This document shows, piece after piece, positions 6,613-9,546 of a stretch of DNA of 40,648 nucleotides. Source of the DNA: Nocardia ninae NBRC 108245 (GTDB lineage: Bacteria; Actinomycetota; Actinomycetes; Mycobacteriales; Mycobacteriaceae); the NCBI RefSeq assembly GCF_007990755.1, contig NZ_BJXA01000081.1, positions 1 through 40,648 on the forward strand, given 5' to 3'. The position numbers were made by a program, and so were the translations under genes. The notes beneath the pieces were generated by a model. The model was not told the origin of the DNA and searched no databases. It saw only the letters and a program-made list of their open reading frames with translations. Every line of letters begins with the position of its first letter. Within the stretch, counting starts at the first letter, position 1.

Positions 6613-8403
<1,791 letters not shown>

Positions 8404-8432
8404 GTCCAGCCACCAGGCAACACCTTTAGAAA

Positions 8433-8470
8433 CCGGAAGCCGGTCCACCCTCGGGTGGACCGGCTTCCGG
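8433..8470. terminator. Strong hairpin after groEL2
   Basis: An almost perfect stem of 17-18 bp: CCGGAAGCCGGTCCACCC pairs with its complement at 8453-8470 around a 2-4 nt loop. It lies 30 bp after the groEL2 stop and lacks a clear U-tract on the plus strand. It probably ends groEL2 transcription and could also stop any transcript arriving from the iron box side. Confidence 0.75.
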
Positions 8471-8510
8471 CGTCTGCGGAGTCCCTTCCGCTTGCTTCCT
8501 GATCGACTGT

Positions 8511-8529
8511 ACAGGTTAGGCTAACCTAC
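8511..8529. promoter_or_regulatory. IdeR/DtxR-type iron box between convergent genes
   Basis: Bases 8513-8528 read AGGTTAGGCTAACCTA, matching 16 of 19 positions of the actinobacterial iron box TTAGGTTAGGCTAACCTAA. IdeR/DmdR bound to Fe(II) represses from such sites. The box is not upstream of a gene: groEL2 ends at 8403 on its left and the lipoprotein gene ends at 8542 on its right. On the minus strand it exactly fills the 18-bp spacer between TTGAAT (8535-8530) and TACAGT (8511-8506). On the plus strand TCGACT (8503-8508) and TACATT (8527-8532) are also 18 bp apart. Confidence 0.72.
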
Positions 8530-8541
8530 ATTCAAATTGCC

Positions 8542-9546
8542 TCAGATGCCGTCGACGGCGAGCACGGCGAAGGGCTGTGGGGTACCGGGTCCCATCGGGC
8601 CGCCCTTGTCGAATTGTGAAGCGACCACCAGGAGTTGGTCGCCGGTGCGGACCAGCGTGGTGGGGATGCTCAGGGCCGCGTCGGTGATGCGCTGGTCCAT
8701 CGTCGCGGTGGCGCCGTCGTCGGTCATGGTCCAGCGGGCGATGGCGTTGTCGGTGTTCTGCACCACCCACAGGGTGTTGTCGTGCAATTCGAGCCCGTCG
8801 CCGTGGATCAGGTTGCCGCCGTGCAGCGCGACCTTGCGGATCGCGTCCGCGGCGTTCGGCGCGAGGGCGATGCGGAACAGCTCGCCCGTGTCCATGTCGA
8901 CAACGAACAAGTAGCGGCCGGCGGCGTCGGCCACGATGCCGTTCAGCGTGAAGCCACCGGGCGCGCGCGGCGCGAGAGCCGGGTTCAGATCGAATTGTGT
9001 TGTCATTTCGGCACGTCCGCCGTGTGCCGCGACGTGGGCGACCTCAGCTGCGGTGATGCGATAGACGACGCCGCGCACCGAGTCGGTCAGGTAGGCGGTG
9101 CCGTCCGGAGTGATGGCGACGTCGTTGACGAAGCGTGCCGCCGGGCCCGGCGCGTCGAACCGGGCGAGCAGGGCGCGGGACGCGGGGTCGTATACGGCGA
9201 CCCCGGCGGTCGAGTCGGTCACCCATAGTCGTCCCGCCTGGTCGACCTTCAGGCCATTGGCGGTCTTGCGGCCGTCGGCGCCCTCGGGCAGGAAGATCTC
9301 GGCCCGCTCGGCTCCCCGTGCGGCCTTGTAGACGGCTCCGGTGCTGTACGAGCCGACGTAGGTGTCGCCGGTGCGCGGGTCGGCGGCGATGCCTTCGGGG
9401 TAGGCGCGGTCGCTCGGCAGGGCGTAGGCGGCGGTGATCCGCGCGGCGGGTTCCGCAGTGTTTTCGCTGGTACCGCAGGCCACGGCGGCAGTACAGGACG
9501 CCGCGATGGCGATGGTTGCCATGCGGCGGCGCGTTGCGTAGGACAT
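8542..9546 (-). CDS. Lipoprotein with SMP-30/gluconolactonase-like propeller
   Basis: A 334-residue exported lipoprotein. The N-terminus MSYATRRRMATIAIAASCTA is a signal peptide and VAC at 22-24 is a lipobox, so C24 would be lipidated. The mature part has recurring beta-propeller strands of the SMP-30/gluconolactonase/LRE type (YPEGIAADPRTGDTYVGSYS, ANGLKVDQAGRLWVTDS, FVNDVAITPDGTAYLTDS, GNLIHGDGLELHDNTLWVV). These proteins bind a divalent metal and hydrolyse lactones, but the substrate cannot be predicted. A GAGAGG ribosome site precedes ATG 9546. It is divergent from the MarR regulator at 9669, which may control it. Confidence 0.8.
   Translation of the reverse strand: MSYATRRRMATIAIAASCTAAVACGTSENTAEPAARITAAYALPSDRAYPEGIAADPRTGDTYVGSYSTGAVYKAARGAERAEIFLPEGADGRKTANGLKVDQAGRLWVTDSTAGVAVYDPASRALLARFDAPGPAARFVNDVAITPDGTAYLTDSVRGVVYRITAAEVAHVAAHGGRAEMTTQFDLNPALAPRAPGGFTLNGIVADAAGRYLFVVDMDTGELFRIALAPNAADAIRKVALHGGNLIHGDGLELHDNTLWVVQNTDNAIARWTMTDDGATATMDQRITDAALSIPTTLVRTGDQLLVVASQFDKGGPMGPGTPQPFAVLAVDGI

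What the first reader, a model, noticed from the sequence alone, without database searches (positions are those of the whole stretch)
8403..8542. IdeR-type iron box with no gene to regulate: candidate iron-controlled small RNA
Seen: AGGTTAGGCTAACCTA (8513-8528) matches 16 of 19 bases of the iron-box consensus yet lies between two convergent gene ends. On the minus strand it exactly fills the 18-bp spacer of TTGAAT/TACAGT. A transcript from there would start near 8499 and meet the 8433-8470 hairpin after about 70 nt, the size of a small RNA. On the plus strand TCGACT/TACATT, also 18 bp apart, would give RNA antisense to the lipoprotein gene. Known: iron-responsive sRNAs such as MrsI exist in mycobacteria and are IdeR-controlled. 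Inference: this could be a nocardial counterpart at a different locus, or the relic of a lost siderophore gene.
Basis: partly seen in the sequence, partly recalled or inferred. Interest (0 to 1): 0.78.

Follow-up and report, generated by a model that had tools for sequence, protein, structure and literature searches.

The report
Second iron-controlled small RNA in Nocardia
Downstream of the chaperonin gene groL a small group of Nocardia species carries what looks like a short regulatory RNA gene that the iron sensor IdeR would switch on when iron runs out, in addition to what appears to be their own copy of the known mycobacterial iron RNA MrsI; it has not been tested in the laboratory.

Summary
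An IdeR-type box (8511-8529, 16 of 19) lies between the convergent ends of groL and an SMP-30-like lipoprotein gene, in an 18-bp minus-strand promoter spacer, ahead of groL's terminator hairpin. In 8 of 150 Nocardia genomes (one clade: suismassiliense, tenerifensis, colli, brasiliensis, vulneris and kin) a minus-strand -10 (TAYAGT), the box, a 5' hairpin with invariant AAGGGAC and the terminator occur together; the other genomes gave no strong match. Box differences between the two main forms stay within the IdeR consensus, and box-bearing copies carry a minus-strand T-run after the terminator. Best reading: an IdeR-repressed, roughly 70-75-nt trans-acting sRNA on the minus strand. The plus-strand and relic readings fit worse. 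It is not MrsI: a model built from blaI-linked MrsI-like loci matches 123 of 150 Nocardia, including this genome (another contig, own box), and does not match the window RNA. So this would be a second, lineage-specific iron sRNA. Both loops contain AGGG, but no conserved target was found. Expression and IdeR binding could not be tested, a strict promoter scan is negative, and conservation exceeds 4-fold sites of the lipoprotein gene but not those of groL.

The parts
8530..8535 (-). -35-like hexamer TTGAAT
   Evidence: TTGAAT in 3 of 8 copies, TTGTAG in 1, TGGAAT in 4
8511..8529 (.). IdeR-type iron box (core AGGTTAGGCTAACCT 8513-8527)
   Evidence: 16 of 19; present in 8 of 8 syntenic copies, the brasiliensis form scoring 17 of 19
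8506..8511 (-). -10 hexamer TACAGT (TACAGT in 3, TATAGT in 5 of 8 copies)
8424..8499 (-). proposed small RNA, about 70-75 nt; start (8499, give or take 3) and end inferred from -10 spacing and terminator
   Evidence: fold z-score -8.02, 0 of 200 shuffles as good, presumably because of the terminator stem
8476..8491 (-). 5' hairpin GCGGA-AGGGAC-TCCGC; AAGGGAC (8487-8481) invariant in 8 of 8, proposed seed
   Evidence: 15 or 16 of 16 identical to the window in the 5 relatives compared
8433..8470 (.). terminator hairpin, shared with groL on the plus strand
8423..8432 (-). minus-strand 3' tail TTTCTAAAGG; the tail begins TTT in 7 of 7 box-bearing haplotypes
6778..8403 (+). groL (GroEL), convergent neighbour (start placed by eye in the listed ORF)
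   Evidence: PF00118
8542..9546 (-). SMP-30/gluconolactonase-like lipoprotein gene, whose stop precedes the sRNA promoter
   Evidence: PF08450

Best explanation
A lineage-specific small RNA gene on the minus strand between groL and an SMP-30-like gene. With iron present, Fe-loaded IdeR sits on the box between -35 and -10 and blocks RNA polymerase (inferred). When iron is scarce the promoter opens and an RNA of about 70-75 nt is made, with a short 5' hairpin exposing AAGGGAC and a 3' terminator hairpin shared with groL (anatomy shown, transcript inferred). It most likely acts in trans by pairing its loop with GUCCCUU-like sites in mRNAs, as MrsI is reported to do with its own seed (inferred, targets unknown). 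It would work alongside MrsI, not instead of it.
For: Box beyond chance. The genome has an IdeR protein (E 4.1e-109 to structure 1fx7); of the 8 other places found by the same box search, 5 adjoin siderophore-type genes (SIP; thioesterase and GNAT; periplasmic binding protein; NRPS condensation domain; FecCD) and one is the MrsI-like locus. R1, built from the 8 copies, finds them in 8 of 150 Nocardia at E 8.6e-20 or better, the next match being 0.027. Minus -10 is TACAGT/TATAGT in 8 of 8; 41 of 62 columns invariant. The four box differences between window and brasiliensis forms raise the score from 16 to 17 of 19; 0.5% of random four-change sets do as well. Element identity exceeds 4-fold sites of the neighbouring lipoprotein gene: 55/62 vs 116/171 (tenerifensis), 53/62 vs 119/168 (colli), 47/62 vs 95/159 (brasiliensis); hairpin 15-16 of 16. 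Minus 3' tail begins TTT in 7 of 7 box-bearing haplotypes and 0 of 31 parsed box-less ones. Same box-in-spacer layout as the MrsI-like gene of the same genome (TTGCTA-18-TATAGT, read).
Against: No RNA data. Strict promoter and terminator scans find nothing. The 5' hairpin alone folds no better than 14 of 200 shuffles. Covariation is almost nil: one compensatory pair, in the shared terminator; one pair of hairpin 1 and one of the terminator are broken in the 4 brasiliensis-group copies. Against groL 4-fold sites (80-97% identical) the element (47-59 of 62, 76-95%) is not clearly more conserved. Only 8 of 150 genomes, all one clade, so the shared traits are not independent. In one search, 7 rows could not be parsed; one of them, box-less L106, has a TTTC tail by eye. 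Seed-site searches near starts: 12 and 15 matches against 12 and 12 reversed controls, 7 and 12 against 7 and 6 (with repeated rows for some sites), 131 and 129 against 212 and 169. The N. brasiliensis small-RNA paper lists no transcript at this locus in its main-text tables; those cells were from BHI agar or mouse lesions, supplements were not available, and that G031 is that strain is my assumption.
Confidence: 0.75

Rival explanations
1. An iron-controlled cis-antisense RNA: the minus-strand transcript overlaps the 3' untranslated end of groL mRNA and acts on groL stability or termination, not in trans.
For: The RNA is antisense to groL's 3' end and shares its terminator hairpin.
Against: The most conserved non-terminator part, the AAGGGAC hairpin, lies beyond groL's own terminator, where groL mRNA should end.
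Confidence: 0.12
2. The box drives a plus-strand RNA antisense to the lipoprotein gene.
For: TCGACT/TACATT, 18 bp apart, in the window.
Against: The plus -10 is TACATT in only 3 of 8, TATCTA in 1, TTAATT in 4; the stretch between box and lipoprotein stop aligns poorly between lineages.
Confidence: 0.04
3. Relic: the box survives from a lost iron-regulated gene or is a chance IdeR site without output.
For: Small clade only; no plausible protein gene directly downstream in either direction (by eye); weak consensus promoter; element no more conserved than groL 4-fold sites.
Against: The box differences respect the IdeR consensus, and -10, hairpin and T-run are kept with it.
Confidence: 0.08
4. 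It is the MrsI gene moved to a new place.
For: Same promoter layout; both proposed loops contain AGGG.
Against: The MrsI model R2 does not match the window element, and all 8 box-bearing genomes have an R2 match elsewhere.
Confidence: 0.01

Closest known systems
MrsI (ncRv11846), IdeR-linked iron-sparing sRNA of mycobacteria
   Same: IdeR box between -35 and -10 (compared with MrsI-like loci), intergenic, short, a proposed purine-rich loop containing AGGG, 3' terminator hairpin
   Different: Other locus (groL/SMP-30 instead of blaI or thioesterase-urease), other loop (AAGGGAC vs AGGGCUG), no outer GGACCG-CGGUCC stem, not matched by the MrsI model, coexists with MrsI, shares groL's terminator; 8 of 150 Nocardia versus 123 of 150 for the MrsI model
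Paired iron sRNAs of other phyla (RyhB-1/RyhB-2, PrrF1/PrrF2; recalled, not looked up)
   Same: Two iron-repressed sRNAs in one genome
   Different: Those pairs are similar copies under Fur; here the two RNAs show no sequence match and both have IdeR-type boxes

Membership tests
MrsI | IdeR box in the sRNA promoter | tested here: met
   (predicted box; binding not tested)
MrsI | Locus beside blaI and rv1847 (PMC8628891, passages; urease as further neighbour is recalled) | tested here: not met
   the MrsI-like gene of this genome lies at C125 in a stretch with FecCD, thioesterase and urease-like ORFs (by eye)
MrsI | Conserved core with 7-nt apical loop (loop length from PMC11188477; sequence AGGGCUG from A3) | tested here: not met
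   R2 gives no match in the window at E up to 10
MrsI | Represses bfrA and other iron-protein mRNAs by seed pairing | not testable with these tools
   5' ends of ferritin-family genes of six genomes inspected only; no target established
Iron-repressed trans-acting sRNA (functional class) | Noncoding intergenic transcription unit with promoter, iron operator and terminator | tested here: inconclusive
   supported by comparison; strict consensus scan negative; transcription not tested
Iron-repressed trans-acting sRNA (functional class) | Expression rises when iron is scarce | not testable with these tools
   no RNA data at hand
Iron-repressed trans-acting sRNA (functional class) | Conserved mRNA targets | tested here: inconclusive
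   no convincing excess over control; one weak lead (M28-like peptidase gene)
Any Rfam 15 family | Match above gathering score | tested here: not met
   0 in the window; 25 matches at E up to 5 in 8380-8600, all below gathering

The most novel reading that the evidence does not exclude
The brasiliensis-suismassiliense clade of Nocardia has a two-RNA iron-sparing circuit: ancestral MrsI (loop AGGGCUG) plus this younger IdeR sRNA (loop AAGGGAC) without sequence match to it, which arose beside groL by adding an IdeR promoter and a seed hairpin to an existing terminator, and which adds a second target set.
Probability: 0.5. Interest if true: 0.65.

Novelty: new member of a known kind. Interest (0 to 1): 0.52.

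Why it matters
To my knowledge (recalled) few iron-responsive sRNAs of actinobacteria are described, and seven searches of the held library showed no paper on an IdeR-controlled sRNA in Nocardia. If real, this is a clear case of a new sRNA gene arising where a repressor-controlled promoter and a seed hairpin were placed next to an existing terminator, and it gives a genus that includes human pathogens a second iron-linked RNA besides MrsI. The side result, an MrsI-like gene in 123 of 150 Nocardia, makes MrsI's role testable outside mycobacteria.

Tried and rejected
MrsI identity of the window element: rejected. Pairing of the window RNA with MrsI as a sponge: in five genomes 41 to 133 of 500 shuffles paired as well; rejected. 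Targets, 9-nt seed complement near start codons in G000 and G031: counts at control level upstream of starts (12 and 15 vs 12 and 12); downstream 7 and 12 vs 7 and 6, where some sites give more than one row. The pairs that I saw recur in both genomes were, by eye, the ribosome-binding site of a gene whose protein begins like SodA, another ribosome-binding site, and coding sequence resembling adenosine deaminase (names recalled, not searched); in all three the coding strand has the same sense as the RNA, so they are not targets. 7-nt complement in G127 and G031: 131 and 129 vs 212 and 169 controls; the list was cut, so I saw about 100 of G031's and about 50 of G127's places. Twelve regions were fetched and viewed with some loci; the only gene start that I saw with the site directly before a Shine-Dalgarno sequence in both genomes is a secreted peptidase resembling family M28 (by eye), a weak lead with no iron link. 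Ferritin-family genes in six genomes: a bfrB-like gene carries GGAGTCCC, complementary to the window form of the RNA, across codons 5-8 in 5 of 6; it is broken in G129 and does not fit the brasiliensis form of the RNA; judged coincidence. Five weak R1 matches in the family search (E 1.6e-4 to 0.0034): L145 turned out to be a blaI-linked MrsI-like locus; L143, L144, L146 look like iron boxes before genes and L147 matches only the hairpin part (by eye). Rfam: sub-threshold matches only, mostly on the terminator hairpin. N. brasiliensis ncRNA paper PMC5543724: parts 1, 2 and 5 of 5 and passages read; no transcript at this locus in its main-text tables.

Full report
OBSERVATION. The window is a Nocardia contig (C81 of a 9.70-Mb, 204-contig assembly), closest to N. 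suismassiliense among the rows compared (97% over groL plus the lipoprotein gene). Between the convergent ends of groL (stop 8403, +) and an SMP-30/NHL-type lipoprotein gene (8542-9546, -) lies an IdeR-type box at 8511-8529, 16 of 19 to the consensus; 0 of 100 shuffles of the window give such a match. Genome-wide the search finds 11 matches at 9 distinct places, 0 for the reversed control. Of the 8 other places, 5 adjoin siderophore-type genes (siderophore-interacting protein; thioesterase and GNAT; periplasmic binding protein; NRPS condensation domain; FecCD permease), one is the MrsI-like locus on C125 with a FecCD gene about 0.8 kb away, and for two (L001, L002) the ORF tested gave no Pfam match. 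The genome has an IdeR protein (best PDB match IdeR 1fx7, E 4.1e-109).

COMPARISON. A search for the lipoprotein gave 80 loci; in 27 of them groL was found in the fetched stretch. The box is in the groL-lipoprotein gap of 5 of these 27 (L008 suismassiliense, L009 tenerifensis, L010 colli, L011 vulneris, L013 brasiliensis); the best match in the other 22 is 7-11 of 19. A DNA search found 8 copies covering nearly the whole element among 150 Nocardia; the other matches listed cover the terminator part (list cut). A profile of promoter plus 5' hairpin (R1, built from those 8) matched the same 8 of 150 at E 8.6e-20 or better, the next at 0.027. In 401 genomes drawn from the family, 7 matched at E 0.01 or better: 2 known copies and 5 weak ones (1.6e-4 to 0.0034). 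On a groL plus lipoprotein tree of 28 rows the 6 box-bearing rows fall, with box-less N. altamirensis, in one supported clade (100/99); the best tree needs two changes (one gain and one loss, or two gains), and a single origin is not ruled out.

WHAT IS CONSERVED. Of 62 columns from -35 to the end of the 5' hairpin 41 are invariant in 8 of 8. The minus-strand -10 is TACAGT (3) or TATAGT (5); the -35 is TTGAAT (3), TTGTAG (1), TGGAAT (4). The plus-strand -10 is not kept. Four box bases differ between window and brasiliensis forms; all fit TWAGGTWAGSCTWACCTWA and the score rises from 16 to 17; random sets of four changes reach 17 in 0.5% and 16 in 3.2% of trials. Against the window, the element is 59, 55, 53, 47 and 47 of 62 identical in L008, L009, L010, L011, L013; 4-fold sites of the lipoprotein gene are 85, 68, 71, 60 and 60% identical, those of groL 97, 84, 87, 82 and 80%. 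So the element outdoes the lipoprotein gene but not groL, whose codon use is probably constrained. The hairpin is 15 or 16 of 16 identical; its A-U closing pair is lost in the brasiliensis group. The terminator hairpin is groL's own, present in box-less species too; but its minus-strand tail begins TTT in 7 of 7 distinct box-bearing haplotypes and in 0 of 31 parsed box-less ones, taken from named loci and the best matches, not from all 150 genomes (7 rows unparsed; L106 among them shows TTTC by eye). The box-bearing haplotypes are one clade, so these are not independent cases.

NOT MrsI. Reviews (passages read; the original paper is not held) place MrsI between blaI and rv1847, about 100 nt, with an IdeR site, a 6-nt (6-8 nt) seed and a 7-nt apical loop. 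R1's weak match L145 proved to be blaI - box - RNA - thioesterase-like ORF (ORF named by eye), which led to the family. Of 61 genomes searched with that BlaI, 51 matched; of 30 loci inspected, 13 have a box at 14 or more of 19 on the upstream side and 11 have the core GAGGGCUGC(A/G)G; AGGGCUG is a 7-nt apical loop in 8 of the 10 of these folded at the right place. A model of 10 of these (R2; 4 pairs with changes on both sides, 1 of 500 shuffles as high) matches 123 of 150 Nocardia at E 0.01 or better, among them this genome at C125:2368-2419 and the 7 other box-bearing genomes. There it follows its own IdeR box and TATAGT in a stretch with FecCD, a 4HBT thioesterase and urease-like ORFs (by eye). 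Of 10 Nocardia copies folded, 5 show the 7-nt loop in the minimum-energy fold; the copy of this genome does not. That R2 is MrsI rests on synteny, box and loop, not on a named M. tuberculosis sequence. R2 does not match the window element, and the blaI ortholog of this genome has no box within its fetched locus. Hence the window RNA is a second one.

MECHANISM. Shown: box, promoter-like hexamers, hairpins, their joint conservation, and presence of an IdeR gene. Inferred: repression by Fe-IdeR, the transcript and its ends, trans action through AAGGGAC. MrsI's loop AGGGCUG and this loop share AGGG, which may be chance. Searches for GUCCCUU-type sites near starts gave no convincing excess over control and one weak lead; pairing with MrsI itself is not better than shuffles.

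LITERATURE. Seven searches showed no paper on an IdeR-controlled sRNA in Nocardia; only listings, and passages of a few papers, were seen. The N. brasiliensis small-RNA paper (PMC5543724; parts 1, 2 and 5 of 5 plus passages) lists none at this locus in its main-text tables; its supplements were not available.

VERDICT. Very probably a constrained IdeR-controlled transcription unit, most likely a small RNA; a new member of the iron-sRNA kind, additional to MrsI; what it pairs with is unknown.

Noticed in passing
L212 (G000:C125) 2338-2470; L213-L221: An MrsI-like gene is matched in 123 of 150 Nocardia, including this genome, where it has its own IdeR box and lies near FecCD, thioesterase and urease-like genes instead of beside blaI; Rfam 15 gave no match above gathering score for it.
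   Followed up: partly
L152, L153, L159, L161, L163, L164, L169, L172, L173, L175, L177: MrsI-like RNAs near blaI in seven other genera share the core GAGGGCUGC(A/G)G and a covarying outer stem; in L163 it lies about 1 kb from blaI.
   Followed up: partly
L317 and L318: A secreted M28-like peptidase gene (by eye) has GTCCCTT directly before its Shine-Dalgarno sequence in both G031 and G127: a possible target of the window RNA.
   Followed up: no
L222-L227, upstream of a ferritin-family gene: A conserved AT-rich stretch with an imperfect IdeR-like repeat (TTAGGCAATACTAGCCTCA) precedes this bfrB-like gene in 6 of 6 genomes looked at.
   Followed up: no
L245, L254 (G031, G000:C51): The ribosome-binding site of a SodA-like gene (by eye) is GGAAGGGAC, the same sense as the window RNA's loop, in both genomes.
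   Followed up: no
G104:C64:172028-172078 and 189036-189086: One Nocardia genome has two MrsI-model matches 17 kb apart.
   Followed up: no
L106 (G118): A box-less groL terminator, unparsed by the script, whose minus-strand tail by eye begins TTTC: an exception to the T-run pattern.
   Followed up: no
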